Source: Prosthecobacter dejongeii
GTDB lineage: Bacteria; Verrucomicrobiota; Verrucomicrobiia; Verrucomicrobiales; Verrucomicrobiaceae
Length of the DNA stretch: 64,000 bases
Direction: 5' to 3'
NCBI RefSeq assembly: GCF_014203045.1
Contig: NZ_JACHIF010000004.1
Location: 228,943-292,942 of the forward strand
Below are positions 46,226 through 63,924 of this stretch, piece after piece. Below the pieces are notes generated by a model. The model was not told the origin of the DNA and made no database searches. It was given only the letters and a program-made list of their open reading frames with translations. Each line of letters opens with the position of its first letter. Position 1 is the stretch's first letter. The position numbers and the translations under genes were made by a program.

Positions 46226-47122
46226 ATGAACCGCCAGACTGCCGCAGACTTTGATCAAGATCTCCTCAATCTTTATGATGATTACGCCCACGGTCGCTTA
46301 GACCGCCGTAGCTTTCTTGACCACGCCTCTCGTTTTGCCATCGGCGGAATCACAGCCGCGATGCTACTGGAGATGTTAAGCCCTAATTACGCGCTGGCCG
46401 AGCAGGTATCCAAAGATGACCCCAGAATCCAAACCAGCTATGTCGAATATGACTCACCCTTGGGTGCTGGCAGGATGCAAGGCTTGTGGGTAAAGCCAGT
46501 AAAAAGCAAAGCTAAACTCCCTGGAGTGCTGGTTATTCATGAAAACCGTGGACTCAATCCTTACATTGAGGATGTCGCTCGTCGTGTGGCCGTCGCCGGT
46601 TACGTCGCCTTTGCGCCAGATGCCCTGTTTCCTCTAGGCGGTTATCCCGGCAGCGATGACAAAGGCCGTGAAATGCAGGCACAACGAGATCCTGCCCAGA
46701 TGACAGAAGACTTTATTGCTGCAGCCAAATGGCTAGCCAATCATCCTGACTGCAATGGCAAGATCGGAGTCGTTGGCTTTTGCTACGGTGGGGGTATGGC
46801 AAACACACTTGCCGTTAGGCTGCCTGAAGTGATCCGTGCTGCCGTACCCTTCTATGGCCGCCAACCTGCGGCTGAAGACGTGCCAAAAATCAAAGCCGCC
46901 CTACTGATCCACAACGCTGAAAAAGATCAAAAAGTCAATGAAGGCTGGCCAGCTTACGAAGTAGCGCTCCAAAAGTCGGGCGTTCATTACACCGCCCATT
47001 TATATCCGGGGGCCAATCACGGCTTCCACAATGACACAACTCCTCGTTATGATGAAAGCGCCGCCAAACTGGCTTGGGAGCGAACTCTTGCGTTTTTTAA
47101 AGAAACCCTCAAGGCCGAATGA
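46226..47122 (+). CDS. dienelactone hydrolase family protein (YghX-like), Tat-exported
   Basis: Alpha/beta hydrolase of 298 residues. The N-terminus has a twin-arginine-type signal ([10 protein letters not shown] then [15 protein letters not shown]). [20 protein letters not shown], the Cys nucleophile in [13 protein letters not shown], and [17 protein letters not shown] (His) match dienelactone hydrolases of the YghX group. Substrate unknown. It converges on the DUF1080 gene with 22 bp between stops. Confidence 0.87.
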
Positions 47123-47144
47123 TGCGCCATCCGGCCCATGTTTC

Positions 47145-47885
47145 TCATTTCTTCTCAGCGAGGATTTTGGAAGCCTCCGCTGGGGTGATCTGGCGGAGAA
47201 AAATATTTCTCCAGCGTATCTCCCCGCCATGAGTTTGTAGCATGATGGGGCCACTGGCAGGAAACGGCAGCGTCTTATCCCAAAAGTTTTCCATCTTAGC
47301 CCGATCCACCACCAGCTTATCATTTAACCATACCCAGGTAAGATCGCCAATCTGGCGTATGCGAAAGCTATTCCACTCACCAAACGGTTTATCCGCAAGA
47401 ACCAGAGGATCTCGACCTGGAGTTTTGGGCGTATTGTTAAAAAGGCCTCCTGAGCCGAGTCTGGGATGACGATCCGGCTTCTTCACATCATCAGGTTGAT
47501 GGATATCCCAAATCTGGATTTGAGGGTTCCCTCGCAGGTAGATACCGCTATCCGCCTTAGCTACAGTTTTGTATTCGATGAGCAATTCCACATCACCAAA
47601 AGAAGCATCGGTCGTGGCATAAGGCCCCGTGCCAATGTTCACTAGCTCGCCATTCTCCACACGCCAATGCTGCGCAAATTCAGCACGCATTTTTTGAAGA
47701 GCAGTCTCCTTTTTCTCCCCTGTAAGTTTAGTCACAACATGGGGATTAAGCCCATGCCAGCCCTCAAGATCGCGACCATTGAAGATCGCCTGAAAACCAG
47801 GCGGAGGAGTCGGTTCTGCAGCAAGCGCGGCCATGGAGATGGAAAAAACAATCAATAGCAAAGATGTGCAAAACAACATTTTCAT
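47145..47885 (-). CDS. exported DUF1080 (3-keto-disaccharide hydrolase) protein
   Basis: Predicted secreted LamG-like beta-sandwich protein, 247 residues. ATG 47885 (or 47879) begins the signal peptide MLFCTSLLLIVFSISMAALA. Blocks FQAIFNGRDLEGWHGL, HWRVENGELVNIG, LLIEYKTVAKADSGIYLRG and GPIMLQTHGGEIRWRNIFLR are the hallmark of DUF1080, some members of which hydrolyse 3-keto-disaccharides. The open frame runs on upstream into the CRISPR array, but that extension is only repeat translation. Its start lies 44 bp from the degenerate end repeat of the array. Confidence 0.88.
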   Translation of the reverse strand: MKMLFCTSLLLIVFSISMAALAAEPTPPPGFQAIFNGRDLEGWHGLNPHVVTKLTGEKKETALQKMRAEFAQHWRVENGELVNIGTGPYATTDASFGDVELLIEYKTVAKADSGIYLRGNPQIQIWDIHQPDDVKKPDRHPRLGSGGLFNNTPKTPGRDPLVLADKPFGEWNSFRIRQIGDLTWVWLNDKLVVDRAKMENFWDKTLPFPASGPIMLQTHGGEIRWRNIFLRQITPAEASKILAEKK

Positions 47886-47928
47886 TACACCAGAATAAAC
47901 GCAACTTTGCCAGCTTCCATGCATGCAA

Positions 47929-47964
47929 CAGTCGCTGAGACACCGCTTTTTATGTCGTGGAAAG
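47929..47964 (-). repeat. degenerate terminal CRISPR repeat (trailer end)
   Basis: The right half (19 nt, CTTTTTATGTCGTGGAAAG) differs from the array repeat at two positions, while the left half is strongly diverged. It is separated from the first intact repeat by 37 nt (47965-48001), a normal spacer length. Degeneration at this end marks it as the leader-distal, oldest end. Confidence 0.75.
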
Positions 47965-48001
47965 GAATAGCAACTGGGGCATGTACCCAGACCCACGTCA
48001 C

Positions 48002-51000
48002 GCTTCAACGGAGCCACGATTTTTATGTCGTGGAGAGTCACTCCATAGAAGTGATCTAAAACTTTTCTCGCTAGCTTCAACGGAGCCACGATTTTTATGT
48101 CGTGGAGAGCACCCACATCCACGGCAGTTACACGATCCCCCACGACAGCTTCAACGGAGCCACGATTTTTATGTCGTGGAGAGCTACCCCGAAACTATCC
48201 CCTCAGCCTACGCTGAAAACGCTTCAACGGAGCCACGATTTTTATGTCGTGGAGAGCCTCGATGCCGTTGACCGCGTTGTTCGCGTTCGGGTTGCTTCAA
48301 CGGAGCCACGATTTTTATGTCGTGGAGAGGTGAGGTAGTGCAGGGTGCGCTTCCCCTCCTGGTCGAGCTTCAACGGAGCCACGATTTTTATGTCGTGGAG
48401 AGGCGCGGTGTCGTCTCCTGCAAGTTCTGCGGGTGGCTGGCGGCTTCAACGGAGCCACGATTTTTATGTCGTGGAGAGCTGCACAAGCCGGAAGTAGCGC
48501 AGCCATTGCAAACTCATGCTTCAACGGAGCCACGATTTTTATGTCGTGGAGAGCCGAACTCCGCGCCGCTCAGCGCAAGCTGGACGAGGCGCTTCAACGG
48601 AGCCACGATTTTTATGTCGTGGAGAGGCGGTGCAGTTTTGGCCAAATGCGCAAGCAGGTGTAGGGCTTCAACGGAGCCACGATTTTTATGTCGTGGAGAG
48701 GGGAAGCTGATTGATAATCGAGTGAAGCCATGAAAACAGCTTCAACGGAGCCACGATTTTTATGTCGTGGAGAGCACTGGCACAGCATTGGATATTGAGG
48801 CTGACACTTGGGCTGCTTCAACGGAGCCACGATTTTTATGTCGTGGAGAGATTGCTCCGCGCTCGCCGGTGGTGCCGTGGTTGGAGCTTCAACGGAGCCA
48901 CGATTTTTATGTCGTGGAGAGTGGATGTGAGTGACAACACCTGGAAGCTCACGGATGCGCTTCAACGGAGCCACGATTTTTATGTCGTGGAGAGTGCCCC
49001 TGGTTCTGAATTTGAAGGATCTCGTGTTCGAGCTTCAACGGAGCCACGATTTTTATGTCGTGGAGAGACAAAGATCGAACGCCGCCAGAGCTTCCCGAAG
49101 GGGCAGCTTCAACGGAGCCACGATTTTTATGTCGTGGAGAGCCGCCGTCAATGTCCATGTCAGCAAGGCCGATCCACTCGCTTCAACGGAGCCACGATTT
49201 TTATGTCGTGGAGAGTAGGTTGCGGGAGTTGGAGAACAAAACATTACAATTTAGCTTCAACGGAGCCACGATTTTTATGTCGTGGAGAGCTGGTGCAGGA
49301 AGTTCCCCTGGCTGCGGAACTCCGTGCTTCAACGGAGCCACGATTTTTATGTCGTGGAGAGAGCGGGTGGAGGCTGCGCTGGCCGCTCTGCCGGCATTAG
49401 CTTCAACGGAGCCACGATTTTTATGTCGTGGAGAGCCCAGATTACCCGAACATGTATGCGGTGGACGTCCAGCTTCAACGGAGCCACGATTTTTATGTCG
49501 TGGAGAGTTTCCAGACCATTGCTTTATCTGTCTTCACTTCCTCTCGCTTCAACGGAGCCACGATTTTTATGTCGTGGAGAGCCTTTGCGCAGCGGATGGA
49601 CGCCGCAAGGGTTTCTTCGCTTCAACGGAGCCACGATTTTTATGTCGTGGAGAGTTGATGATGCTGTATTTGCGAGCCACATCCAGGTTATCGCTTCAAC
49701 GGAGCCACGATTTTTATGTCGTGGAGAGTTCCTCAGAAGCTGACCGAATTAGATCCGCCCTCGCTGCTTCAACGGAGCCACGATTTTTATGTCGTGGAGA
49801 GATCGGCGGCCTCTTCAATCTCGTAGGCACTACGACTCGGCTTCAACGGAGCCACGATTTTTATGTCGTGGAGAGAGGGTGGCTACTCGCAGGTTTACCC
49901 AGCCACACGTCCGCTTCAACGGAGCCACGATTTTTATGTCGTGGAGAGTAGCGAAACCGAGGGCCTGACGTTTCGCAATCCGTCGCTTCAACGGAGCCAC
50001 GATTTTTATGTCGTGGAGAGAACCACATCGTGGTAGATGCCAGCAATGCATGTGCCCAGCTTCAACGGAGCCACGATTTTTATGTCGTGGAGAGCTAACG
50101 GGCTCAAGATGCGAATCACCCTCAGCGACTCCGCTTCAACGGAGCCACGATTTTTATGTCGTGGAGAGCTTGCCAAACTCAACCCGCAGAAAGTATGAGC
50201 AAAATGCTTCAACGGAGCCACGATTTTTATGTCGTGGAGAGCCCTTATGCCAACCAAACCCAAGCGACAACATATCAGGCTTCAACGGAGCCACGATTTT
50301 TATGTCGTGGAGAGATCCCAGTCTTTAGCTGGTCGAGAAAGTTTTAGAATAGCTTCAACGGAGCCACGATTTTTATGTCGTGGAGAGAAGCCCGAGGCCG
50401 CAGGCACCGGCACCGCCTCCCGGGTGGCTTCAACGGAGCCACGATTTTTATGTCGTGGAGAGCTTCCAGAAGATATCCGCTCTCGTTTCACCTTTGACCA
50501 GCTTCAACGGAGCCACGATTTTTATGTCGTGGAGAGTCATTTATATGACGAATAGTAAACACGCCATGACACACGCTTCAACGGAGCCACGATTTTTATG
50601 TCGTGGAGAGTTGCTGAGGATGTGCTGACGGAATCTTACCACCACACGCTTCAACGGAGCCACGATTTTTATGTCGTGGAGAGCGCTGCCGTAGGGGGTG
50701 GTGATGGACGTCACCGGCGAGAGCTTCAACGGAGCCACGATTTTTATGTCGTGGAGAGCCACCGAAAACAAAGTTGTCCTCCACATCCAGATCAGCTTCA
50801 ACGGAGCCACGATTTTTATGTCGTGGAGAGGTAGGGCTTCCGCGTTGTTCATCGCTCCAATCATCACGCTTCAACGGAGCCACGATTTTTATGTCGTGGA
50901 GAGGAAGCGGTCGAAGACGGGACGGCGGGTGAAGGTGCTGCTTCAACGGAGCCACGATTTTTATGTCGTGGAGAGGTGCTGGACGTGGCCACGTCGGGAA

Positions 51001-54000
51001 TCCTGGTGGTCAAGCTTCAACGGAGCCACGATTTTTATGTCGTGGAGAGCTGCGACCTCGAAGTCCTCCATTCCCGACCATGAACGGCTTCAACGGAGCC
51101 ACGATTTTTATGTCGTGGAGAGATCACCTTGCCATTTTTGATAACGGTCAGGTGCGATGCTTCAACGGAGCCACGATTTTTATGTCGTGGAGAGGACACC
51201 CACGCTAAACCCGCTACAACTCGCGAGTATGTAGCTTCAACGGAGCCACGATTTTTATGTCGTGGAGAGTCCTGGATAGGGCCAGACGTAAGCCCAAACA
51301 TCGCCTTTGCTTCAACGGAGCCACGATTTTTATGTCGTGGAGAGTGTGCATGGATTCCAGCCATTTATCCTTGGAAAGAGCTTCAACGGAGCCACGATTT
51401 TTATGTCGTGGAGAGGGCATTCCATAGTGGTACGAATTTTCCCGCCACGCAGGCTTCAACGGAGCCACGATTTTTATGTCGTGGAGAGCACATGGCAAGC
51501 CGTCCCAAAGAAAAACGACCGCCTTGCTTCAACGGAGCCACGATTTTTATGTCGTGGAGAGGGGTGTCGCGGATGACTTCGCCGTCTTCGGAGATGATGC
51601 TTCAACGGAGCCACGATTTTTATGTCGTGGAGAGACCGAACTCCGCGCCACTCAGCGCAAGCTGGACGAGGCGCTTCAACGGAGCCACGATTTTTATGTC
51701 GTGGAGAGACAAGGTTGTCACCGACTGTCTGCTCGTAGGGAAAGCTTCAACGGAGCCACGATTTTTATGTCGTGGAGAGCTGCTATGGCTTGCCCTCAGC
51801 GGTGGCCTAGTCACCATGCTTCAACGGAGCCACGATTTTTATGTCGTGGAGAGATCCGTGCAAGACTGCAACCTCAGCGCCAACCCCGCCGCTTCAACGG
51901 AGCCACGATTTTTATGTCGTGGAGAGCTGATGGAACGCAGGTTGCAGAGACGCAGCGTTATCTGCTTCAACGGAGCCACGATTTTTATGTCGTGGAGAGT
52001 TGCGCAGGGAGTTTGAGGAGGCGGCAAAAATTTTTGGGCTTCAACGGAGCCACGATTTTTATGTCGTGGAGAGGCCGCCTGGAATGCTCATCCATCGTCG
52101 GGGAGCATGGCCGCTTCAACGGAGCCACGATTTTTATGTCGTGGAGAGAAGGGGAGCGAACGAAAGTTCTAACGGTTTTATAGCCTGCTTCAACGGAGCC
52201 ACGATTTTTATGTCGTGGAGAGGGCTTTCTGTAAGAGATGCTTTCGATAACTATCTTAAATGGCTTCAACGGAGCCACGATTTTTATGTCGTGGAGAGAA
52301 AAGCCCGTGGGCTTTACCACGGGCTTTTGAATGGCTTCAACGGAGCCACGATTTTTATGTCGTGGAGAGCTGTGGGATGCTGACCCCAGGTCGAACGGAG
52401 CACGGGCCGCTTCAACGGAGCCACGATTTTTATGTCGTGGAGAGGGGCCGTAGTATTGCGGCCTCAACCACACGGGAACGAAGCTTCAACGGAGCCACGA
52501 TTTTTATGTCGTGGAGAGGCCCAGGCCAAACTGGTGCAGGCCTTCATGTCGTGAGCAGCTTCAACGGAGCCACGATTTTTATGTCGTGGAGAGAACGGGG
52601 CCAATCTGTTCATCGGCTGCAACGCGGGGTTGCTTCAACGGAGCCACGATTTTTATGTCGTGGAGAGTTTCACACGCGTTGGTGGCCGGGCCGATCAGCA
52701 CAGCTTCAACGGAGCCACGATTTTTATGTCGTGGAGAGGGGCATAAAAAAGGAAGGTTTCGGATTCGCAGAGGTGCTTCAACGGAGCCACGATTTTTATG
52801 TCGTGGAGAGATTTTGATCGTCTTTTAAGTATCTCCACCGTTTTTTTAAGCTTCAACGGAGCCACGATTTTTATGTCGTGGAGAGGCGGCAAGAGGGTTT
52901 CTAGGGTGTGGGTCATGGCTTTTGCTTCAACGGAGCCACGATTTTTATGTCGTGGAGAGCCCACAATGGGAGATCGAGGGGCATGGACTGCCAGGCGCTT
53001 CAACGGAGCCACGATTTTTATGTCGTGGAGAGTTTGCAATACCAAAATACCCCCCATAGCTACCCCATGTAGCTTCAACGGAGCCACGATTTTTATGTCG
53101 TGGAGAGCCGCAGTTCGTGATTCTTCTTCACCCGGTCCGGAATGGCTTCAACGGAGCCACGATTTTTATGTCGTGGAGAGTTTTGGAAAAACGCTACAAG
53201 GTTTACGTGCTTCGTGCCGCTTCAACGGAGCCACGATTTTTATGTCGTGGAGAGGGGGTGCCGGGAAAGTTGATGGACGGTTGAATGGCTCCGCTTCAAC
53301 GGAGCCACGATTTTTATGTCGTGGAGAGTTCCCACCGATCATGAAACTGGGCGACTTCTCCGCATGGCTTCAACGGAGCCACGATTTTTATGTCGTGGAG
53401 AGTCTTTGAAGACCTGCCCGACCAGCAGCTCGCACGGCAGCTTCAACGGAGCCACGATTTTTATGTCGTGGAGAGCCTGCCGCATCAGGAGCGTCAATGG
53501 TGACCACGCGCTGCTTCAACGGAGCCACGATTTTTATGTCGTGGAGAGTAAAAAGCCTGATAACTTGCCTGATGGCGTGGAGTGGCTTCAACGGAGCCAC
53601 GATTTTTATGTCGTGGAGAGTCTCCAACGACGTGAAGAACCAACTCCGCTCCGCAGGGCTTCAACGGAGCCACGATTTTTATGTCGTGGAGAGATGGCCT
53701 TTGTGTAAATGTGCCTGAAACTTCAAGGGTTGCTTCAACGGAGCCACGATTTTTATGTCGTGGAGAGCCGGCAGGCCGCTTTGGATGCTGCGCACGGAGC
53801 CTTGCTTCAACGGAGCCACGATTTTTATGTCGTGGAGAGCTCGCTCTCGCTGTTCCCGCACCACTCCGCCACCTGACCGCTTCAACGGAGCCACGATTTT
53901 TATGTCGTGGAGAGGCAGAGATTCAAAGATGTATTTCCCATCATCAAAAGAGGCTTCAACGGAGCCACGATTTTTATGTCGTGGAGAGTAGTAGCCGGTG

Positions 54001-54139
54001 GCGCTGAAGTTGCCTTGCTCCGTGATTCCGCTTCAACGGAGCCACGATTTTTATGTCGTGGAGAGCCCAGGAACTCATCCCACTCCGAGCTCTCCATGAA
54101 CTCGCTTCAACGGAGCCACGATTTTTATGTCGTGGAGAG
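48002..54139 (-). CRISPR. CRISPR array: 84 full 36-nt repeats, 83 spacers (type I-G)
   Basis: By eye 84 apparently identical 36-nt repeats start at 48002, 48074, 48148 ... 54030, 54104, with spacers of about 35-41 nt. On the plus strand the repeat reads GCTTCAACGGAG, stem CCACGA, loop TTTTTATG, stem TCGTGG, then AGAG. In the opposite direction it ends in GTTGAAGC, like the usual crRNA 5' handle, and the degenerate repeat is at the left end; both argue for transcription on the minus strand from a leader next to cas2. The hairpin would be processed by the Cas6-like part of Csb2. The repeat has no stop codon in most frames, which creates many false reading frames. Two spacers are near-identical (48554-48590 and 51635-51672) and one (52299-52333) is a perfect hairpin. 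Confidence 0.98.
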
Positions 54140-54344
54140 AGTCGCTTTATAAACCTCGTATGCATGGGCTATCCAGAGGTATTTTGCGAGTGGTGCGGAA
54201 ATTGCCAGCATTAGATAGGATCGCTCTTCAGTTTGAGCGTATTAAACTGCTGATAATGAACACGCGAGTGGCTGCGGAGGGTGCGAGCGGGACTTGACCG
54301 CTCGAAGAAGTTTAAAATGTCAAAGAACAAAGTACGTGGGTGTT
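54140..54344 (-). promoter_or_regulatory. putative CRISPR leader between cas2 and the array
   Basis: No gene is seen here. On the minus strand it runs from the cas2 stop to the first (newest) repeat. TTGACA occurs at 54323-54318 followed by an A/T stretch TTTTAAAC, but no good -10 at standard spacing was found. A hairpin ACGTG-GTGT / ACAC-C-CACGT at about 54332-54354 overlaps the cas2 stop and may end the cas transcript. Position and polarity of the array make this the leader; the promoter itself is not proven. Confidence 0.6.
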
Positions 54345-54662
54345 CTACACCACGTAGCAAGGCGCATCAAATCTGGAATAGGGAAGCCCCAGCGCTGAAA
54401 TGACGCGATCTCCGCGCCCTTCGGAGGGACCTAGTGAAACGAAGAGCACTTGGTCTTCATCATGTTTGATGACTTCTTTTAGCGTGCGCTGCAATTGAAC
54501 GAGCTCGCGGGGATTCAAGTCGCATTCGAAAACGGAAAACTGCAGGTGAGTTCCGTGATCTTTGCATATTTTGAAAACTTTTCTCAGACGTCGGTCATTG
54601 GAAATGTCATAACACACAAGATAGGTATGTCTTGAGCTGGGGCTGTTATTACGGGCAGACAT
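54345..54662 (-). CDS. cas2: CRISPR-associated endonuclease Cas2
   Basis: Cas2 of 105 residues, the dimeric partner of Cas1 in spacer integration. YLVCYDISNDRRLRKVF has the beta-1 strand with the conserved Asp, and THLQFSVFECDLNPREL the beta-2 region. Start ATG 54662, six bp after the cas4-cas1 stop. The first 12 residues are a short Ser/Asn-rich extension. Confidence 0.97.
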   Translation of the reverse strand: MSARNNSPSSRHTYLVCYDISNDRRLRKVFKICKDHGTHLQFSVFECDLNPRELVQLQRTLKEVIKHDEDQVLFVSLGPSEGRGDRVISALGLPYSRFDAPCYVV

Positions 54663-54668
54663 GGGAAT

Positions 54669-56888
54669 TTACCGGGTGACCATGGGGATGTAGTCGGGGA
54701 TTTCTCCGGTTAGCCAGCGTGCTAGGAGACGGGCTTGGAGTTCTAAGACGCGGCGATAGCTGACTTTGTAGTCGAAAATGGGGTGCGTGATGAGGGTGTT
54801 CATTCGCTGTTCATAGGCCTGGAAGAAGGCTTTGCGGCCGATGGGCGTGAGGTTGACGGCATCCCCGGCGCGGACGAAGTGACCTGGGGTGATCATTCGA
54901 TTATTAATGGCGGTGAGGACGGCGCTTTCGGCGATGAGGGGACGGAATTCTTCCATCAGGTCGAGGGCGAGGGCGGGGCGACCGTGGCGGGGTTGGTGAT
55001 AAAAGCCAATGTAGGGATCGAAGCCGACGGCGAGGGAGGCGATGGTACAGTCTTTGGCGAGGAGGCTGTAGGCGAGTGATAAGAGGGCGTTGACGGGATC
55101 GGTAGGGGGACGGCGGCGACGTTGGTTGAAGTCGAAAGTGAATGTTTCTTTTTCGGTTCTTAGCTTTTTCTGTAATGCGGTGCTGATGTCTAAGCCGGGG
55201 ATGTCATCGTCGGGGTCGTTTTGGCCGATTTTGATCATTCCGGATAGATTTTGGAAGTAGAGGGCGGCGGCGGCGCCTTCCATGCCGAGGAGTTCATCGA
55301 GACCTCGGGCGTCGGGGACGCGGCCAGCGATTTCTTTCATGCCCCGGATGGCGGTGCTAGGGGGATCAATGTGCAGCCGCATGAGCATGGTGCGGTGGTT
55401 GCGGATTTTGGCCTGGACGATTTTGCGGGCGAGGGCGAGGCACTGGACGGGGTTGCTGGCGATGGCGAACTGGCGGATGCGGGTGTGGACGTTTTTGAGG
55501 CCGTAGAACCAGCCGCCCATGCTGAAGTAGGCGATGGGGATTTCTTGTTCGCAGAGTTCTTGGATGGCTTGGGTGGTGAGCTGGATGTTGCCGAAAAGGG
55601 AGACGTGGGTGACGTCGCTAAGGCGGATTTCGTCGAGGGTAGTGTCTCCGTCTTTGATGGTGAGGCGTTCGGATTTGATGCCGACGCGGCAGCCTTGGGT
55701 GTTGAGGTAAAGGGCGCGTTCGTCATCGCGTGCGGCGATGAGGCGACGTGGGGGCAGGGGAATGCGTGTGGGCGAGGGTGGGTTTTCGGGAAGGCGAGCG
55801 TTGGTGGCGAGAAGGCGTGTTTCGTCGGGTAGGCAGACGGGAGCGAGTGAGCAACGGACGCACTTGGGGCTGTTGATGAGGGGTGGCGGCATCGTGGGGG
55901 ATGCGGCGGTGCGGCGGGCTTCGGCGATGTTTTGGATGATCCAGGTTTCGACCTCGGGGGTCATCTGGAGTTTGACTCGCTGTTTGGTGGCGCGGTAATA
56001 GATGACGCCTTCGTTGCAGTGGTAGCCGTTGTCGCGGAGGACGAGGATTTGGAGGCCGAGTTGCATTTTGTCGGCGTCCCAGAGTTCGTTGGCTTCGGGG
56101 CCGATGCGGGGGGAGCCGACTTTGTAGTCAACGGGGGTGACTTGTTGGACTTTGTGTTGGTGGAGTTTTACATGGAGGAGTTGGGGCTGTGGAACGGCGG
56201 TGTCCGTGATGTCGGGCGATGTTGAGTCTGTGGGTGGGGCTGCGAAGAGGTCTGGCTGGTCGGTATTGGGGAGGGCTTTTTTGGTTGTCTTTTTGGTTAG
56301 GTTAGCGGTGGATTGGGGCTGCCAGTTGTGGGTGGATTGGGGGATGAGGGCCATTTGGACTTCGATGAGGTCCATTTTGGCGACGACTCCGAGGCGTTCG
56401 GAGCTCATCATGGCGGAGCGGGAGTGGATGGTCTCGGTCTCGGGTGGGGCCGCGGATTCGGGCGGGGTGGGGGTGTTGTCGGCTGAGGGCGTTGGATTTG
56501 GGGCCGCATCTGGGTTTTGGGCTTTGGGGAGGGCCCCGCGTCCTCGGTCTATTTTTTGATGGATGGCGGAGCCACGTTCGGTGTCGGCATTGTCGAGGAA
56601 GATGCCTTCGACGTGCTCGTAGTAAAAGAGGCGGGGGCAGTAGATGTATTCGTTGAGCTGCCTGGCGGGTAGGGAATCATTTGCGGCGCTTTTGGTTAGG
56701 TGGGGCTCGCGGGTGCTCAAGACCGCGGTGGGGGCGTTGTGCGGATGGCTGGCGCGTTGGAAGCCGAAGAGGTCGAGTTCGGGATGATCTTCGGGGATGG
56801 GAAGTGGCTCGTAGAGGTATTCTAGATCCCAAAGGGCGGCGGGATGCTGATGAAGGGCGCGTGCGGTCCGGTAGTAGGAGGCATTCAT
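54669..56888 (-). CDS. cas4-cas1: Cas4-Cas1 fusion protein
   Basis: Adaptation enzyme of 739 residues joining a Cas4 RecB-like nuclease (N-terminal) and Cas1 integrase. An in-frame TTG at 56894 is less likely than ATG 56888. Cas4 residues: Cys in YIYCPRLFYYEHVEG (~84), SAIHQK, KMDLIE, PVDYKVG (Asp/Lys ~254-256), and three Cys in CVRCSLAPVC (~343-352) for the Fe-S cluster. Cas1 residues: Glu in GMEG (~537), His in PRHGRP (~635), acidic LDLMEEF (~643-647). I-G fusions are usually nearer 550-600 residues; the excess is a ~75-residue N-terminal extension and Pro/Thr-rich insertions at ~120-158 and ~185-235 inside Cas4. Confidence 0.95.
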   Translation of the reverse strand: MNASYYRTARALHQHPAALWDLEYLYEPLPIPEDHPELDLFGFQRASHPHNAPTAVLSTREPHLTKSAANDSLPARQLNEYIYCPRLFYYEHVEGIFLDNADTERGSAIHQKIDRGRGALPKAQNPDAAPNPTPSADNTPTPPESAAPPETETIHSRSAMMSSERLGVVAKMDLIEVQMALIPQSTHNWQPQSTANLTKKTTKKALPNTDQPDLFAAPPTDSTSPDITDTAVPQPQLLHVKLHQHKVQQVTPVDYKVGSPRIGPEANELWDADKMQLGLQILVLRDNGYHCNEGVIYYRATKQRVKLQMTPEVETWIIQNIAEARRTAASPTMPPPLINSPKCVRCSLAPVCLPDETRLLATNARLPENPPSPTRIPLPPRRLIAARDDERALYLNTQGCRVGIKSERLTIKDGDTTLDEIRLSDVTHVSLFGNIQLTTQAIQELCEQEIPIAYFSMGGWFYGLKNVHTRIRQFAIASNPVQCLALARKIVQAKIRNHRTMLMRLHIDPPSTAIRGMKEIAGRVPDARGLDELLGMEGAAAALYFQNLSGMIKIGQNDPDDDIPGLDISTALQKKLRTEKETFTFDFNQRRRRPPTDPVNALLSLAYSLLAKDCTIASLAVGFDPYIGFYHQPRHGRPALALDLMEEFRPLIAESAVLTAINNRMITPGHFVRAGDAVNLTPIGRKAFFQAYEQRMNTLITHPIFDYKVSYRRVLELQARLLARWLTGEIPDYIPMVTR

Positions 56889-56982
56889 GGGCAAGTCCGA
56901 GAATTTATGACTATAGGCCTAACTTAAGGTGTGGGGCAAGCGGCAATGGAGGTGTGTGGACTGGACGAAAGCGGGGAGCCCG

Positions 56983-57571
56983 GCGCATTGGGACAACGCG
57001 CCCTACCCTGGGAGAGTGCAGGCAGGAGTGCCTGCATCACCTGGGGGATGGAGGAGCACGAAAGGTGCGGAGGATACGGAATGGTTTGGGGGCTTGTGAA
57101 GAGGGATGCTGCGCATCCTAGATTTAGATGCGGGCAGGAGTGCCCACGCTCCTCTCGGGGTTTGTTGGAAGCGGGGAGATGTTTTTGTTATGAGCGGATT
57201 TGGGCGGACTTGAGAGTCCAGCGCGTTGGGACAATGCTCCCTACCGGGGAAGTGCAGGCAGGAGTGCCTGCATCACCTGGGGGATGGAGGACCACGGATG
57301 TTGCGGAAGACACGGAATGCTTTGGGGGCTTGTGAAGAGGGATGCTGCGCATCCTAGATTTAGATGCGGGCAGGAGTGCCCACGCTCCTCTCGGGGCTTC
57401 TTGGAAGCGGGGAGATGTTTTTGTTATGAGCGGATCTGAGCAGTTAAAGGAGGGGGGCTGAGCGTTGGGACAACGCTCCCTACCGAGGGGTCTTGTGGAG
57501 AGGGCGGGGTGAGGCGTGGGCTGAATGCGGGGGGCCGGAGCGTTGGGACAACGCTTCCTACCTGGGGGGAT
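56983..57571. repeat. cluster of tandem REP-like palindromic repeats
   Basis: Two near-identical units of about 238-240 bp start at 56983 and 57221, with truncated copies at 57461 and 57539. Each unit holds several perfect small palindromes: AGCGTTG-GGA-CAACGCT followed by CCTACC (best at 57461 and 57539), GCAGGCA-GGAG-TGCCTGC, GGATGC-TGC-GCATCC and GGGCA-GGAG-TGCCC. No coding sequence is supported. The remaining bases to 57749 show nothing recognisable. Confidence 0.85.
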
Positions 57572-57749
57572 GGAGCGGCTTGTTTTGGCCGGGGGGATTT
57601 TATCGAGTTAAAGCTCTTGAGTACTTTGGCTTGGTCTTTGGATGGGGGCTTCTGGACCTAACGGGAAGTGTGTTGCGATTGCTGATTTGGTGGGCGGCGG
57701 GGGGCTCTGCCTGGGCTGGTTGGTTAGGCTAAGGGTGAGCCTGGGGGCT

Positions 57750-58172
57750 TCAGTCGTTGGGTTCGGCTGGGTATTGGACGGGTGGCTGGCCGATTTTGGA
57801 GTGGGCTTTTTTATAGCCTTTTTGATGGTCGGACTCTTGGACCTTTCGGCAGGTGAGGAGGAACAACCATTCGTCGCCGTAATCGAAGAGGAAGATCATT
57901 TTTCGCCGAGGGCGGAAGACTTTGGAGATGGGTGTGTTTTTGACTCCTATGTCGGTTTCTTTGACCTCTTCCCCCATGTCGGCAAAGAGGCTGTAGGTCT
58001 CTTTGCTCTGGTAGGGATTTTTGACGTTGTCACCAAACTCGAAGGCGTGATCAAAGTCGAATTTTATGGTCTTGATGATGAATGCTGCCAGATCATACAG
58101 GGAGAGTTCGCCGTCGATTGCGAGCTCGGCTTGGAAATCTTCATGTTGGAGGGTGAGATGCTATTCTTTCAT
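57750..58172 (-). pseudogene. pRiA4b ORF-3-like protein gene with amber stop at codon 4
   Basis: On the minus strand the frame reads ATG AAA GAA TAG at 58172-58161 and then stays open for about 136 codons: HLTLQHEDFQAELAIDG, LSLYDLAAFIIKTIKFDFDH, KMIFLFDYGDEWLFLL and GQPPVQYP. The order (Leu-rich start, DH, FDYGDEW, PPVQYP) matches the plasmid pRiA4b ORF-3/IS1096 passenger family, whose members start with a similar strand where the TAG would be Tyr. No other start occurs before the ATG at 57977, which would lose half the domain. It is therefore a probable pseudogene, or a sequencing error, inserted between csb3 and cas4-cas1. Confidence 0.7.
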
Positions 58173-58253
58173 CCAGGGAAAAAAGAAGGGGGAACTCTCT
58201 CAGTCAATGGGAACGAAGAGACCGAGACCGAAGTTGGATGTGTAATGAGTGGC

Positions 58254-59351
58254 CTACACAGCCGTTGCTGGGGTGAAGTTCCGAAATTTGCCCTGGGTGA
58301 AGCGTTCACAACGATAGAGACGAAAAACTCCACGCGGCGAGAGCTGGCAGTGATCTGGTTTGTCTTCTTGGCTTTCTGCTAAGGCGATTAGGCTGCGGGT
58401 GGTGGCAATGTCGATGGGAATATCCCACAAGGGCCAAGTCCAAGTGGTGGCTTTATCAATGTCTGTGAAGCCCGTAGTGCGGAGACCGGATTGGCGAGGA
58501 TGGACGGGGTGGAGTGCAAGCCCAGTGACTGCGAGGGCATTGGCTCCGATCATGCCGCCCTGCTTTTTGCGCTCTGGGTCGCCGCTAGGATTGCGCCAGC
58601 GAAGGGCGTAACGCACGTCATCAAGGGGATCCAAACGCAGACTGAGTGATTCAGTGGGATCGTCGTAGACCCATGGAGCAAAAAGCGTCTTGGTAATGTG
58701 CTCCGGGGCGAGGGAAAGAAGTTGGTTAGCCATGATACCAAGGAAGTGCTGGTGGCCTGCACCACGCACGGTGCGAAAGGCGGTGTCTTCGGCGAGGCCT
58801 TCGTCATCTTCACAGGCGCTGCTGCATAAGGCGGCTAGGGTGGCAGCGTGGAAAGATTGCTCATGTGCCGTGGCTTGAGCTTGCAATTCCCAAGCACGCC
58901 ACTCTGGAGCTTTGAACTTGGTATCAGGACCGTAGTTAAGGTGTGGGGCGGCGTGCTCAAGCCAACGCACTCGTAGTTTGGTGATCTCGGAATTGAAGGC
59001 TACCTTGCGATCTTTGAGGTCGGTTTTGGTGAGGCTTTTGTCTTTCTCGGCTTGTTTAAGGCTGACCTCGATTTGCTCAATGCGGGTGCGGAGTAGTTCG
59101 CGCGCAGTCAGTCCGGCACTGGGATCAGTTGGTCCGCCAATGAGGGCGGTGTGCAGGCTTTCCACAAGCTCGGCCTTGGTGAGTGGATGTGAGGTGTGTA
59201 GTCTGGCTTTCTCGGTCCGTAAGTCCCATGAGAGCTTTGGCTTCCAATCGGGATGATGATGGGCGAGGAGGCGGAGGGTGCCGAGGGCGGCGAGGTAGCC
59301 GACGCTGTTGCTGCCTTTGAGGCCGATGAGTTGAAGAGTGTGGGTGCTCAT
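58254..59351 (-). CDS. csb3: type I-G CRISPR-associated protein Csb3 (Cas8-like large subunit)
   Basis: Putative large subunit of the I-G interference complex, 365 residues. The frame opens at 59462, but ATG 59351 (MSTHTLQLIGLKGSNSVGYL) overlaps the cas3 stop as ATGA, exactly as at the other two junctions, and starts the conserved N-terminus (GLKGSNSVGYLAALGTLRLL). It matches the GSU0052/Csb3 group in size and place; the related Csx17 protein of other I-G loci is about twice as long. It would help recognise PAM and recruit Cas3. A 1.4-kb gap with repeats and a pseudogene separates it from cas4-cas1. Confidence 0.82.
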   Translation of the reverse strand: MSTHTLQLIGLKGSNSVGYLAALGTLRLLAHHHPDWKPKLSWDLRTEKARLHTSHPLTKAELVESLHTALIGGPTDPSAGLTARELLRTRIEQIEVSLKQAEKDKSLTKTDLKDRKVAFNSEITKLRVRWLEHAAPHLNYGPDTKFKAPEWRAWELQAQATAHEQSFHAATLAALCSSACEDDEGLAEDTAFRTVRGAGHQHFLGIMANQLLSLAPEHITKTLFAPWVYDDPTESLSLRLDPLDDVRYALRWRNPSGDPERKKQGGMIGANALAVTGLALHPVHPRQSGLRTTGFTDIDKATTWTWPLWDIPIDIATTRSLIALAESQEDKPDHCQLSPRGVFRLYRCERFTQGKFRNFTPATAV

Positions 59352-62300
59352 GCGGGCTGGGTGATGGTTTGCTCTATCGCGCTGACTTGCTGGTCGGCGA
59401 GGCGGAAGAGGGCTTCCAGCCAGGCGAGACCCCAGGGGCCGAAGCGGTTCTGGAGTCGCCAAAATCGTTCACTAATGGCGCTGTCGAGTCGTTCAAGACC
59501 AGAGACTGCGACATGGGTAAGTGATTGCTGAGCAGCTTTGCAGGTGACGGTAAGGTTTAAGCCATGTGGGTCATTGATGACTGGTGCAAAGGGGCGGCAG
59601 TAACCGTGGTGGCTTGCGATGAGGTGAAGGATGAGGTCTTGCTCTTCGATGTCCTGCCAAAGTGCTGGGCTGCACTCGGCAAGGCGAGTGCTCAGGAGTT
59701 CGTGGCGTCCGCCTGCGGGATAGCCTGCGGCTTTGCGCTGCTCTTCAGCTTGTCGGCGAGTTGCTGGAAGGCGGGCGGACTTGGCTAAAAGCTGGTCTAT
59801 TGCGGGTGCAAAGCCTGGAGAGCCTGCGATGAGCATGGACTGAAAGCGAGGGTCGGCCTTGCCGGTGTCGTGCAGCAGTCCGGCCAGATGGAAGGCGCGG
59901 ACTATGGTCTCAGGCAGGCCCACTGCTTTAGCGTGTTGGCTGGCGCGCTTGGCTACATCTTTGCTGTGTGTTTCCAGAAGGACGGCTTGGGCGCTGCGAG
60001 AGCTGCTGAAGCTGTCGTCGGGAGTGGGATCGTCTTCTACATCAAGAGAAAGCCGATAGCGGCGGGTGCTGCGGAGGATGAACCCGGCAGGGGATAGAGG
60101 CTGATGAATGGCACGCTCTAAGCGGCGCTGGTTGTCGATCTCATCATGCAGGGCGGCACAGGCTTTGAGCAGCCATTGGTGCTCAGGGCTTTGTTTTGCG
60201 CATTCTTGTAGGCTTTTGAGAATGGCTTGGAAATGCGCCTTGGCTGGAGCAAGGTCTTCGAGCATTGGTTCAATGGAGTTGGCTTCGAGCCAAGGCTGGA
60301 GTAACTCCGGCCATTGTGGTTCATCATCCTTGGCAGTGCTGGGTTTTGGCCAGTGAGCAGTCAAGTTCTTGTGAAACCGCAAAGTGGGGCGTGCCCGAGC
60401 GCTGTGTTGGACATAATCCCCTAAATCGAGGTGAATGCTGGGGATATCCTTTCCAGCAATGTCTTCACGAAGCCAGAACAGGGCGCTGGAGTGATCGCTG
60501 AGGATAATTGTGTCTCCCTGCTTTAAGCCATCGAGCTGACGTATATTCGTAATGATGAAGCTAGAAGCTTCATTGTCATCAGCTTGTTTTTTGTGCTTGG
60601 GGTTGCTGCGCAGCGGACCACGCCAGCAAACGGCAAACAACGGCTTGTCTGATTCGGGGAGCTTGAGATCGGGTTCTTTGGAGGTATCGTCGCTATCGAG
60701 AGAGAGAGCTTTAGCCGCTTGATCGTCTTTCGTGGTGGCAAACCACTGAAGCAGAGCCCAGCGTGGGACGCTGAGGCACTCGGCGGCCGCGGGAGGGCAA
60801 AGGGCGATGTGATCAAAAAGGGCCTCTTCGTTGCCCTGGCTCGGTGGTGCTAAGTTAAGTCTCCAACACAGGCTTATCTCGGGAGCATTGGTGCTTTTGC
60901 CGTGAAGGAAAAGGCTAGGCTCGGGTTCGCAGTGCGGCTTGGGACTGGTTTGGCTCCATGCTTCAATATGGGCAGGGAGCATGGCAGGGGCATCTCGGGG
61001 CTCGAGGCGGAGCTTAGCGGCTTCGGAGGGTTCGAGAGCAGCTAGCTGTGGCTGAAGGGCGTTAATACCGAAGTCGAGTTGGTCTGCTGGGATTGTATTT
61101 AGCCAAGTCCAGGTCTCAGGAAGGGCACGAGCATAGACGGGGTCGAGATTTTTATCGTCGGCGGGTGCGGTGTTCTGATCGGCTCGGATAACAATGGTAG
61201 CGAGTGCCTGGATGGGGCGTCCACCACGATTGAGGCGGCCAAAACGCTGGCGTAAGGAACCGAGGCTGGCGCATTCGGTGACAAGCCCGTCGAAGTCCAT
61301 GTCAGCTCCTACTTCGAGGCACTGCGTAGCCACAACGAAGACCGGACCACGCTCTGGATTTTTGGCAGCGGCACCTGTGCTGAGGTGAAAAGTGGACTCC
61401 GCTTTGGCAACGATGCGATCACGGTCGTAAGGCCTCATGCGGCCCGTGAGTAGAACATGCGGTTTATCTTTGAGCAGTTCGGCAACTCTCTGTGCGGTGG
61501 CAACGCGGTTGACCAGAATGGCGATGACGCGCCGATCCTCTTTTTGAAGAGTTTTGGCTTCAGAGACGAGCTTGACGGCAAGTTTCTCCACGAAATCCCC
61601 TTGCTTGGTTCCTTCTGCGATGACGAGGCTTGCGGGTTTGCTGGCGGACCAGCGTTTGCCGAGGGTCGGATGCTGGCGGTCTGGGATAAGCTCTTCGTCG
61701 GTAGCTGGAAAACGGTCTGTGCAGGCCTCTGGCGGCGTGGCGGACATGACGACGAAGCGGAAGGGCGCGGGGAGTGCATCCTGAGCGTAGCGGCGATAGT
61801 GAGCGATGGCGTTGGCGGTCTGGAGGAACGGCTCAGCGATGTGGGCTTCATCCAAAAGGATGAGCATGTCATTCCCCACAAGGCCGGCTTGAATCGGCAG
61901 AGCACCGGGACTGGCTCCGTAGCCACGAAAGAGCAGCCGTGAGCCGAGTTGATCAACCGTCGAGCAGAGAACGAGAGGCTGGAGCGGGTTATTGCTCCAA
62001 GTTTGATCACGGAAAACGCCACCACGCAGCGTGACGACACGGAGAGGGTCTTCAGCGAAGTCTCCTGCGAGCGCACGCAAACGACAGGCAACGGCTTCGA
62101 CGATGGCTGAGTCTCTGGCTCCGGGCTTAAGGGCAGCGGTGATCTTTTCTGCACGAGCGCTGGCTTCATCCACGATGATGCGACGATCTACCACAAAGGC
62201 GATACGACGTGGGGCGGTGCGCTGCCCGGGCGGAAGATCGGCCTGGGCTGCCAGTGCGAACAGGGCGATGTCGATGCAGGCGGTCTTGCCGCTGGCAGTG

Positions 62301-62437
62301 GGCAGGGTGATAGCTTGGGGCCAGCCTTTGCCTGCATCCAGCACGCGCTGCATGAGGCGCTCTTGCCACGGAAAAGGCTCCACGCCATGCACGGCGTGGA
62401 AAAAGTCGCTGAACTGGTCTGTGGTAAGGGCGCTCAT
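59348..62437 (-). CDS. cas3: CRISPR-associated helicase-nuclease Cas3 (helicase first, HD domain last)
   Basis: Effector nuclease of 1029 residues in the GSU0051 arrangement. The SF2 helicase comes first: PWQERLMQRV, Walker A LPTASGKTACIDIA (~45-52), DEAH in LILLDEAHIAEPF (~200), SATPPE, and QRFGRLNRGG (motif VI). The HD nuclease is C-terminal: AFHLAGLLHDTGKADPRFQ (His ~850, His-Asp ~856-857), GGRHE (~912) and ASHHGY (~943). In standard I-A to I-F Cas3 the HD domain is N-terminal. Start ATG 62437 overlaps the csb2 stop as ATGA. Confidence 0.95.
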   Translation of the reverse strand: MSALTTDQFSDFFHAVHGVEPFPWQERLMQRVLDAGKGWPQAITLPTASGKTACIDIALFALAAQADLPPGQRTAPRRIAFVVDRRIIVDEASARAEKITAALKPGARDSAIVEAVACRLRALAGDFAEDPLRVVTLRGGVFRDQTWSNNPLQPLVLCSTVDQLGSRLLFRGYGASPGALPIQAGLVGNDMLILLDEAHIAEPFLQTANAIAHYRRYAQDALPAPFRFVVMSATPPEACTDRFPATDEELIPDRQHPTLGKRWSASKPASLVIAEGTKQGDFVEKLAVKLVSEAKTLQKEDRRVIAILVNRVATAQRVAELLKDKPHVLLTGRMRPYDRDRIVAKAESTFHLSTGAAAKNPERGPVFVVATQCLEVGADMDFDGLVTECASLGSLRQRFGRLNRGGRPIQALATIVIRADQNTAPADDKNLDPVYARALPETWTWLNTIPADQLDFGINALQPQLAALEPSEAAKLRLEPRDAPAMLPAHIEAWSQTSPKPHCEPEPSLFLHGKSTNAPEISLCWRLNLAPPSQGNEEALFDHIALCPPAAAECLSVPRWALLQWFATTKDDQAAKALSLDSDDTSKEPDLKLPESDKPLFAVCWRGPLRSNPKHKKQADDNEASSFIITNIRQLDGLKQGDTIILSDHSSALFWLREDIAGKDIPSIHLDLGDYVQHSARARPTLRFHKNLTAHWPKPSTAKDDEPQWPELLQPWLEANSIEPMLEDLAPAKAHFQAILKSLQECAKQSPEHQWLLKACAALHDEIDNQRRLERAIHQPLSPAGFILRSTRRYRLSLDVEDDPTPDDSFSSSRSAQAVLLETHSKDVAKRASQHAKAVGLPETIVRAFHLAGLLHDTGKADPRFQSMLIAGSPGFAPAIDQLLAKSARLPATRRQAEEQRKAAGYPAGGRHELLSTRLAECSPALWQDIEEQDLILHLIASHHGYCRPFAPVINDPHGLNLTVTCKAAQQSLTHVAVSGLERLDSAISERFWRLQNRFGPWGLAWLEALFRLADQQVSAIEQTITQPA

Positions 62438-63924
62438 GCAAAGGCTCCGGTGAGGGGTCGAAATAGGCCATAACCACGATACCGGCCTGCGCCCAGCATG
62501 AGGGGGCCATGCACTTCATCCGTGAAGGTGATGGCAACATGGCTGTGATGAATGTTGCCCCCTGATTTACGCTGAAGGCAGGGAAAGCCGCGATTTGCAG
62601 GGCTGCCCTGATGGGCGGAGACAGGCATGATGTGGACGGAGCGAATGATGTTCTCCGGCAGGCCGACATGTTTGCAGGCTTGCAAAACCATTTTCTCGAT
62701 TTCGTCGTAGGCATCTTCACCTCGTCCCTTTGGATGACGATCAAAGGCCATAGGGGTGACGGTGGCCCAACGTTTGCTGGGTTGAGTCCAAAGCTCTGGA
62801 ACCAGAGTCTGCGGACGGGAGGATTCGGCAAGTTCTAGCTGCATTTCACCAATTTTCCCGAGGACGAGCTTCAGTGTGCGTGGCTCGCCATCGTCAAAAA
62901 AAATGGAATGGAGAAGAGGACTTTGCAGGTCTGTAGGCAGAGCGAGGGCGAAACCCATAATGCGGCCATCACCATGATTGTGACCGACGTTTGCCAAAGG
63001 TAGGAAGGAGAGATGGGGGCGGTCAGTGGGTTGGCCAGGCCGACTATGGCCCGAGAGCCACTCCGGCGCGGGCTGTTCAGGACAGATGGCCATGAGGGTA
63101 TCTCGCAGGGCTCGGGTGAGCTGGCCTGTGCTCTCGAGGCCAAAGCGGCGTCCCCCAGTCTGGCGAAGCACAATGAGATCAGAGGAAAAAACGGTGTGGT
63201 GGCTGGAATCGGTCTGCTCTGGCCGGTTAGAGTCTAAGTCATAGGAGCCCCACATAACAGGCTTGGGCCGGAGACCTTGAACGAAAAGGCGTTCAAGCTC
63301 ATCAAATCGTCCCGGATTTGGGATGCGGAGGCGGCTTGCCGTGAGACGAGTGGAACCGGGCTTCCAAAGGGGCAGGCTTTTAGCTTGGTCAGGCACTATG
63401 TCTGTTAGCCAGCACTCGACGGGCGATGAGGAGTGGCCCAAGTAGGTGACCCGGCTGCAAAGATCGGCTAGAGCGCTGCGCTCGGTGGGAGGAGGATCGG
63501 TTGGCCAGACGAAGGCAACAAGAGTTGGATCTATGCCCTCAACTAAGTGCAATGGCCGCACAGCAGGGAAGAAACGAGGCTGCTTACCACGTTTTTCAGG
63601 AAGGACGGAGAGGCCATCGTCGATGACATCGTTCGAGGTCTTATCATCAACTTTCCTCGGGGTGACTGCGTCGTTGGTGGGAACGAAGACAGTTACGACA
63701 TCGCGGTGCTGGATCTCAGAAACAGCTCGCAATTCAGGTGCGGGCTGCTCCTCCAGCCAATGGAGGGCAGCCTGAGCTGCGGGCGAGCGATGAGTTTCAC
63801 CCCAGGCGGCGACCAGGGCCATATAGAGTCGGTCAGGGTGCGGCGGCCACTCAGCTAACTTGTAGCTGCTGGGATGTGTGGCCACGGCTCGCCCCATGAG
63901 GTAGCGAACGCAGATGGTGATCAT
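62434..63924 (-). CDS. csb2: type I-G protein Csb2 (Cas5-Cas6 fusion)
   Basis: GSU0054-type protein of 496 residues that combines a Cas5-like N-terminal RAMP domain and a Cas6-like C-terminal RAMP domain, serving complex assembly and crRNA processing. KLAEWPPHPDRLYMALVAAW is the hallmark N-terminal block; the glycine-rich loop GPLMLGAGRYRGYGLFRPL near the C-terminus is the Cas6 signature. IHHSHVAITF contributes a His pair that might act in cleavage. It overlaps both csb1 and cas3 by four bases (ATGA). Confidence 0.93.
   Translation of the reverse strand: MITICVRYLMGRAVATHPSSYKLAEWPPHPDRLYMALVAAWGETHRSPAAQAALHWLEEQPAPELRAVSEIQHRDVVTVFVPTNDAVTPRKVDDKTSNDVIDDGLSVLPEKRGKQPRFFPAVRPLHLVEGIDPTLVAFVWPTDPPPTERSALADLCSRVTYLGHSSSPVECWLTDIVPDQAKSLPLWKPGSTRLTASRLRIPNPGRFDELERLFVQGLRPKPVMWGSYDLDSNRPEQTDSSHHTVFSSDLIVLRQTGGRRFGLESTGQLTRALRDTLMAICPEQPAPEWLSGHSRPGQPTDRPHLSFLPLANVGHNHGDGRIMGFALALPTDLQSPLLHSIFFDDGEPRTLKLVLGKIGEMQLELAESSRPQTLVPELWTQPSKRWATVTPMAFDRHPKGRGEDAYDEIEKMVLQACKHVGLPENIIRSVHIMPVSAHQGSPANRGFPCLQRKSGGNIHHSHVAITFTDEVHGPLMLGAGRYRGYGLFRPLTGAFA

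What the first reader, a model, noticed from the sequence alone, without database searches (positions are those of the whole stretch)
52299..52333. A spacer that is a perfect terminator-like hairpin may silence the older part of the array
The 35-nt spacer contains AAAAGCCCGTGG and CCACGGGCTTTT, a perfect 12-bp inverted repeat with a GCTTTA loop: the look of an intrinsic terminator captured from a phage or plasmid. If the array is read from the right, 24 spacers lie before it and 58 after it, so transcription of the older spacers could drop here. Its own crRNA would also fold on itself.
Basis: partly seen in the sequence, partly recalled or inferred. Interest (0 to 1): 0.65.

Follow-up and report, generated by a model that had tools for sequence, protein, structure and literature searches.

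The report
Phage terminator captured as CRISPR spacer
One of the 83 memories in this bacterial immune array is a copy of a stop-transcription signal taken from a virus, so it may partly cut off the reading of the older memories behind it, although the array also seems to carry an anti-stop signal.

Summary
Spacer 52299-52333 holds a perfect 12-bp stem with a 6-nt loop, the only one among 83 spacers (next best 7 bp). The array is type I-G and is read from the right, so 24 newer spacers precede it and 58 older ones follow. Its origin was found: a 33-of-35 copy in a congener's prophage, in the 64-bp gap between two convergent ORFs near the integrase gene. The host's own prophage has a diverged hairpin at the matching place. 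The spacer is thus a captured bidirectional intrinsic terminator of a temperate phage. By a hairpin-plus-T-tract score it is the strongest such site in the 62.9 kb of the window scored, but weaker than the phage original, whose T-tract was cut at the spacer edge; the consensus scan did not list it. Silencing of the older array is not shown. All 18 family I-G leaders aligned share a boxA-like motif, an element linked to read-through of long arrays. Sampling of phage DNA explains its presence without selection. I expect partial termination and a poorly working crRNA.

The parts
52299..52333 (-). Spacer 59 of 83 from the left (25th from the leader); captured phage terminator. crRNA sense CATTCAAAAGCCCGTGGTAAAGCCCACGGGCTTTT
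   Evidence: 33 of 35 identical to G013:C5:6935-6969; fold -20.2 kcal/mol, z -6.6
52299..52310 (.). One 12-nt arm of the perfect stem
52317..52328 (.). Other 12-nt arm of the perfect stem
52293..52302 (-). T-tract in crRNA sense, TTTT of the spacer then CTCTCC of the next repeat
   Evidence: phage original reads TTTTTATTGT
48002..54139 (-). CRISPR array, 84 identical 36-nt repeats, 83 spacers
52370..54103 (-). The 24 newer spacers (with the repeats between them), leader side of the hairpin
48038..52262 (-). The 58 older spacers (with the repeats between them), beyond the hairpin
54140..54344 (-). Leader between cas2 and the first repeat
54318..54329 (-). boxA-like motif TGTTCTTTGACA in the leader; TCTTT core kept in 18 of 18 aligned I-G leaders
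54345..54662 (-). cas2 (Cas2g)
54669..56894 (-). Cas4-Cas1 fusion of type I-G
   Evidence: NF049935
58254..59462 (-). Cas8g by PADLOC, 'Cas3-extension family' by NCBIfam
59348..62437 (-). cas3g helicase-nuclease
   Evidence: TIGR02621
62434..63924 (-). csb2 (Cas5-Cas6 fusion; the type's pre-crRNA nuclease)
   Evidence: TIGR02165; role from PMC9638904 passages

Best explanation
It is an ordinary immune memory with an awkward sequence. A type I-G adaptation machine copied the bidirectional intrinsic terminator that lies between two convergent genes near the integrase of a temperate phage. Shown here: the structure, the origin in a phage family of the same genus, the reading direction. Inferred: in the pre-crRNA the hairpin forms as it leaves RNA polymerase and, with the UUUUCUCU tail, ends a fraction of the transcripts, lowering the 58 older crRNAs and also this one (a terminated transcript lacks the next repeat hairpin that Csb2 binds). 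A boxA-like leader element probably lets many polymerases pass. The crRNA that is made folds on itself and is a weak guide. No selection for a switch is needed.
For: Only perfect stem above 7 bp in 83 spacers. 33 of 35 match in a congener prophage between convergent ORFs, with anti-repressor, Arc-like repressor, tail-fibre and integrase genes nearby. Spacers 80 and 41 match the same 9-kb stretch with 6 and 8 mismatches; shuffled spacers gave none at 11 or fewer. The host's own prophage has a diverged hairpin at the matching place in homologous flanks, and a third relative of the neighbouring ORF has an 11-bp hairpin 11 nt after its stop. Score 17.7 in crRNA sense, other 82 spacers at or below -37; flanking window DNA peaks at 8.1. 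boxA-like core in 18 of 18 aligned I-G leaders. Capture rate fits phage DNA: 0.87 stems of 10 bp or more expected in 633 spacers, 1 seen.
Against: The G013 copy is not the exact source: 2 mismatches and TCC where TTN is expected. The consensus terminator scan, which wants 5 T in 8, did not list the hairpin (60 of 88 rows shown, longest stems first). Host DNA has hardly more terminator-like sites than one shuffle (28 against 20 in 47 kb), so how much this host relies on such terminators is unknown. No boxA was found in the 330 nt before the host's 16S gene, where the contig ends. The score formula and the boxA label are recalled, not tested functionally. No RNA data.
Confidence: 0.7

Rival explanations
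1. Strong silencing: the hairpin terminates nearly all transcripts and the 58 older spacers are effectively dead.
For: Strongest terminator-like score in the 62.9 kb of window scored, in both directions. The parent sites are at phage gene ends.
Against: T-tract cut to 4 T plus CTCT; score 17.7 against 33.3 for the phage original. Not listed by the consensus scan. Conserved boxA-like leader. In vitro, a Nus-SuhB complex lowered intrinsic termination too (PMC6614801, passages). All older repeats intact, though this is weak evidence.
Confidence: 0.15
2. No effect on transcription: antitermination from the leader passes the hairpin fully, and only this spacer's own crRNA suffers from folding.
For: boxA-like core in 18 of 18 aligned leaders; boxA upstream of a synthetic array raised expression of distal spacers (PMC7862264, passages). 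Repeats beyond the hairpin undecayed.
Against: Whether boxA complexes of this lineage suppress intrinsic, rather than Rho-dependent, termination is unknown. No boxA seen in the available 330 nt before the host's 16S gene.
Confidence: 0.25
3. Chance palindrome or host-derived sequence, not a phage terminator.
For: The stem motif occurs in many bacterial genomes (100 stretches), so a match of the stem alone means little; the reversed-pattern control also hit 1 of 68 genomes at 2 mismatches.
Against: Those 100 stretches match the spacer at no more than 29 of 35; the G013 prophage reaches 33. The longer pattern matched only the array and G013 in 384 class genomes, with no control hit. The flanks are homologous in two prophages. 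The host genome outside the array has no site within 2 mismatches of the core that keeps all arm pairs.
Confidence: 0.03
4. The hairpin was kept because it lowers expression of older, self-matching spacers.
For: Spacers 23 (1 mismatch to the resident prophage's portal gene, TTT) and 13 (4 mismatches to a second resident element, TTG) lie beyond the hairpin.
Against: Two of two behind the hairpin has about even odds by chance (58 x 57 / 82 x 81, hand arithmetic). Their mismatches sit at the crRNA 5' end, which could by itself prevent self-attack.
Confidence: 0.05

Closest known systems
Type I-G (former I-U) CRISPR-Cas systems, e.g. of Thioalkalivibrio sulfidiphilus and Geobacter sulfurreducens
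   Same: Cas2, Cas4-Cas1 fusion, Cas8g-type protein, Cas3g, Csb2; 36-nt repeat with a central hairpin.
   Different: Nothing in the machinery that I tested; the array holds one spacer that is itself a terminator hairpin.
Bidirectional intrinsic terminators of temperate phages
   Same: GC-rich stem with A-tract and T-tract on either side, between convergent genes; parent sites found in two prophages.
   Different: The captured copy sits in an array and has lost part of one T-tract.
boxA antitermination of bacterial CRISPR arrays (Stringer et al. 2020, cited in PMC7862264; the original is not held)
   Same: A boxA-like motif in the leader before the first repeat.
   Different: That work is described as concerning Rho (PMC7862264 passages); here an intrinsic hairpin lies in the path, which it does not settle.
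Spacer-borne transcription signals: cryptic promoters in Sulfolobales spacers (PMC10883916), antisense termination at poly-T of Pyrobaculum repeats (PMC3396285)
   Same: Array sequence acts on array transcription (passages).
   Different: Those are promoters in spacers, and terminators in repeats of archaea; here an intrinsic terminator in a bacterial spacer, with a traceable phage source.

Membership tests
Type I-G CRISPR-Cas | Cas4-Cas1 fusion, Cas3g and Csb2 of the I-G families | tested here: met
   NF049935, TIGR02621 and TIGR02165 above their cut-offs; PADLOC agrees
Type I-G CRISPR-Cas | Cas7g backbone gene | not tested
   Not among the five proteins identified; the window ends at csb2 and I did not look beyond it
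Type I-G CRISPR-Cas | TTN PAM | tested here: inconclusive
   TTT and TTG at the two self-matches with 1 and 4 mismatches, not at the other six matches counted
Phage-derived spacer | Protospacer in a phage or prophage | tested here: met
   33 of 35 in a prophage region of G013; no exact copy found in the collections searched
Intrinsic terminator | Stable GC-rich hairpin | tested here: met
   12-bp perfect stem, -20.2 kcal/mol, z -6.6
Intrinsic terminator | T-rich tract directly after the stem | tested here: inconclusive
   6 T in the 8 bases after the GC core, passes my score; not listed by the scan that needs 5 T in 8 after the full stem
Intrinsic terminator | Position at a gene end in the parent | tested here: met
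   64-bp gap between convergent ORFs in G013; matching places in two relatives
Intrinsic terminator | Stops RNA polymerase in this array | not testable with these tools
   Needs RNA-seq or transcription assays
boxA antitermination leader | Conserved boxA-like motif ahead of the array | tested here: met
   TCTTT core in 18 of 18 aligned leaders of related genomes
boxA antitermination leader | Same motif before the host's rRNA genes | tested here: inconclusive
   None in the 330 nt before 16S; the contig ends there
boxA antitermination leader | NusB/E-dependent read-through | not testable with these tools
   Needs experiments

The most novel reading that the evidence does not exclude
The captured terminator works as a regulated age gate: with antitermination low, only the 24 newest spacers are read; with antitermination high, the older 58 are read too. 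Two spacers that match resident prophages next to a TTN motif (23 and 13) lie behind the gate, so it could also have eased autoimmunity and been kept for that.
Probability: 0.06. Interest if true: 0.82.

Novelty: new member of a known kind. Interest (0 to 1): 0.42.

Why it matters
It is a natural experiment: a strong phage terminator placed 24 units into a long array whose leader carries a conserved boxA-like element. RNA read on either side would show whether CRISPR antitermination passes intrinsic hairpins and not only Rho, and whether one badly chosen spacer can disable older immunity. It also gives a first rate for the hazard: perfect stems of 10 bp or more in 0.14% of 37-nt windows of the prophage regions examined, and in 1 of 633 spacers.

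Tried and rejected
Protospacer in named collections: no match for the array in the INPHARED phages or PLSDB plasmids at E up to 1. IMG/VR: exact hairpin core none; a 20-base core 2 contigs that read as the same sequence in opposite orientation, with unlike flanks; 21 bases of the seed side none. The GTDB r220 scan returned exactly 100 stretches, probably a cap, so it is not exhaustive. IMG/VR relatives of the 121-aa prophage protein: none; of the integrase: 4, not pursued. In the family search with all spacers joined, only 4 candidates per genome were scored (3 in one), so it is incomplete.

PAM: TTN at 2 of 8 matches; not settled. A weaker match of the hairpin spacer in G061 (8 mismatches) was set aside.

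Repeat decay as a test of silencing: none in the 84 repeats here, but of six other family arrays that I profiled (of 17 found) three had none either (164, 78 and 21 repeats), two had changes only in the last repeat, and one had 10 single changes in its last 13 of 62. The test has little power. Self-matching spacers behind the hairpin: about even odds by chance. A -35 box reading of the leader motif (TTGACA): rejected because several leaders lose it but keep TCTTT. Host rRNA boxA: not found, contig ends. Rfam: nothing at gathering cut-offs in the window.

Papers: nine searches. One search found none; some searches gave listings, only 12 of 306. In the listings and the passages I read no paper reports a natural spacer acting as an intrinsic terminator; PMC8616872 has no word beginning 'terminat'. 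That is not proof of absence from print. Stringer et al. 2020 is not held.

Full report
WHAT IS THERE. The array runs from 48002 to 54139: 84 repeats of 36 nt, all identical, and 83 spacers of 35-41 nt. The spacer in question, 52299-52333, contains AAAAGCCCGTGG-GCTTTA-CCACGGGCTTTT, a perfect 12-bp stem. The next longest perfect stem among the 83 is 7 bp. In random spacers 0.00036 such stems are expected per 83, and none of 12 bp or more appeared in 33,200 shuffled or 33,200 Markov spacers. In crRNA sense it folds at -20.2 kcal/mol, z -6.6. Spacer 33, GC-rich, reaches -18.2 without such a stem, so the stem rather than the energy is the outlier. With both flanking repeats the hairpin persists and the downstream repeat hairpin forms; the upstream repeat hairpin is not in the best structure.

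SYSTEM AND DIRECTION. To the right, on the minus strand, lie cas2, a Cas4-Cas1 fusion, a Cas8g / 'Cas3-extension' protein, cas3g and csb2: type I-G. The leader lies between cas2 and the array. In crRNA sense the repeat is CTCTCC-stem-loop-stem-CTCCGTTGAAGC; repeats of relatives keep the ends while the stem arms change together. A repeat-like remnant lies at the far left. Mismatches between spacers and their genomic matches crowd in the first 8 nt of the crRNA-sense spacer: 21 of 43 over 8 matches, p 6e-5; last 8 nt, 8 of 43, p 0.72. Those rows are the matches with up to 9 mismatches in the eight regions, without spacer 50 (a near-copy of spacer 8) and the reverse reading of the palindrome; spacer 80 counts twice. 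Without its second row: 18 of 36, p 1e-4. With five more rows, some perhaps chance: 42 of 84. This fits a 5' seed on the minus strand. So the array is read right to left, 24 spacers before the hairpin and 58 after.

ORIGIN. A pattern for the core with its own loop, up to 2 mismatches, matched 2 of 68 family genomes: the host's array and one place in congener G013; the reversed-pattern control hit 1 of 68. At the G013 place the match extends to 33 of 35. A longer pattern, up to 3 mismatches, matched the same two places only in 384 class genomes, with no control hit. The G013 site fills the right half of the 64-bp gap between a 121-aa ORF and a convergent GYF-domain ORF, overlapping the latter's stop by one base. 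Nearby are a Bro-N/Ant anti-repressor, an Arc-like repressor, a tail-fibre-like protein and an integrase. Spacer 80 matches that integrase gene with 6 mismatches and spacer 41 another place in the stretch with 8; shuffled spacers gave no match at 11 or fewer in the eight regions searched (5 mononucleotide shuffles). The host's own genome has a prophage with a 75%-identical integrase, a GYF-domain relative (70% over 54 aa) and a relative of the 121-aa protein (64% over 61 aa); beside the last, between it and a convergent 153-aa ORF, lies a different hairpin, AAAGCCCGTCTCAAGACGGGCTTT, with homologous flanking DNA. In another genus (G002) a relative of the same ORF ends and 11 nt later AAAAGCCCGGTCAAGCACCGGGCTTTT follows. 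Changed arms with kept pairing at the end of the same gene is what a working terminator looks like. Six further rows of relatives of this ORF, in three genomes, showed no such hairpin right after the match; they were not pursued. The G013 copy is not the exact source: 2 mismatches, and TCC where type I-G uses TTN (TTN from a passage of PMC9638904).

HOW GOOD A TERMINATOR. With a classical hairpin-plus-T-tract score (formula recalled) the spacer scores 17.7 in crRNA sense and 17.6 in antisense; the other 82 spacers are at or below -37.3 and -39.8. None of 550 spacers in 17 other arrays of the family scores above 0 and none has a perfect stem above 9 bp (3 of the 20 stretches fetched held no array). 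Window DNA outside the array peaks at 8.1 (1-47000) and 2.0 (54400-64000); it has 28 sites above -30 in 47 kb against 20 in one shuffle, so this host shows few clear terminators of this kind. The parent-type prophage terminators score 33.3 and 38.5 in their stronger sense. Capture cut the T-tract: TTTTTATTGT in the phage, TTTTCTCTCC here, where the next repeat begins. The independent consensus scan, which asks for 5 T in 8 bases after the whole stem, did not list the hairpin. So it is a real but weakened terminator by sequence.

IS IT SELECTED? In 35 kb of the two prophage regions (ends not mapped), 0.14% of 37-nt windows hold a perfect stem of 10 bp or more: 0.11 expected in 83 spacers and 0.87 in 633, against 1 of 633 observed. 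Sampling of phage DNA explains it; neither enrichment nor depletion is visible.

WHAT IT PROBABLY DOES. Termination would end the RNA within the first bases of the next repeat, so this spacer's own 3' repeat hairpin, which Csb2 binds and cleaves near (passages of PMC9638904), would be lost along with all 58 older units. Against complete loss stands the leader. In 18 of 18 I-G leaders that I aligned (19 cas2 loci of this type were found; the other has 2 nt downstream, and 13 less similar cas2 rows were left out) a motif [TC]GNTCTTT is kept shortly after cas2; other kept blocks are GCGAG and CTCGC. Some members lose the TTGACA reading but keep TCTTT, which fits boxA better than a -35 box. The leaders are homologous, so conservation partly reflects kinship. 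boxA upstream of a synthetic array raised distal spacer expression (PMC7862264, passages). In vitro, a Nus-SuhB complex on an rRNA signal lowered Rho-dependent and also intrinsic termination (PMC6614801, passages). Folding within an array lowered crRNA yield for Cas12a (PMC6610086, passages). Premature termination that favours new spacers has been proposed for Sulfolobales (PMC10883916, passages). I therefore expect partial termination and a poor crRNA. All 58 older repeats are intact, but family arrays without such a hairpin are about as intact, so this says little.

VERDICT. Observation right; phage origin and gene-end position confirmed; silencing plausible but unproven, most likely partial. 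An ordinary kind of event with an unusually clear history, and a good test bed for antitermination of CRISPR arrays.

Noticed in passing
spacer 23, window 49655-49692; L180 about 9440-9477 (G000:C4:384440-384477): Near-perfect self-match: one mismatch, at crRNA position 5, to the portal gene of the host's own prophage, next to TTT.
   Followed up: partly
spacer 13, window 48922-48958; L181 (G000:C2:316765) and L222: Four mismatches (positions 2, 3, 6, 30) to a second element of the host genome, next to TTG; the same sequence is an IMG/VR viral contig, IMGVR_UViG_2861697045_000002.
   Followed up: partly
spacers 8 (48554-48590) and 50 (51635-51672): Near-duplicate spacers, 42 positions apart, differing by one base and one nt of offset; perhaps two captures from related phages.
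   Followed up: no
every repeat, 48002-54139, + strand: On the antisense strand each repeat is terminator-like (GCTTC-AAC-GGAGC then a run of 5 T); 88 sites found in 47000-55000 against 9.1 in shuffles. In Pyrobaculum antisense reads end at poly-T in repeats (PMC3396285, passages).
   Followed up: no
54140-54344 and leaders of 17 related loci (L117-L133): Besides the boxA-like motif the I-G leaders share GCGAG and CTCGC blocks, perhaps protein sites for adaptation.
   Followed up: no
56895-58253: A 1.36-kb gap inside the cas cluster between the Cas4-Cas1 gene and the Cas8g-type gene; the 246-aa + strand ORF there (57642-58382) had no PADLOC or NCBIfam match.
   Followed up: no
about 47944-47964: Repeat remnant CGCTTTTTATGTCGTGGAAAG left of the first full repeat, the trailer end of the array.
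   Followed up: no
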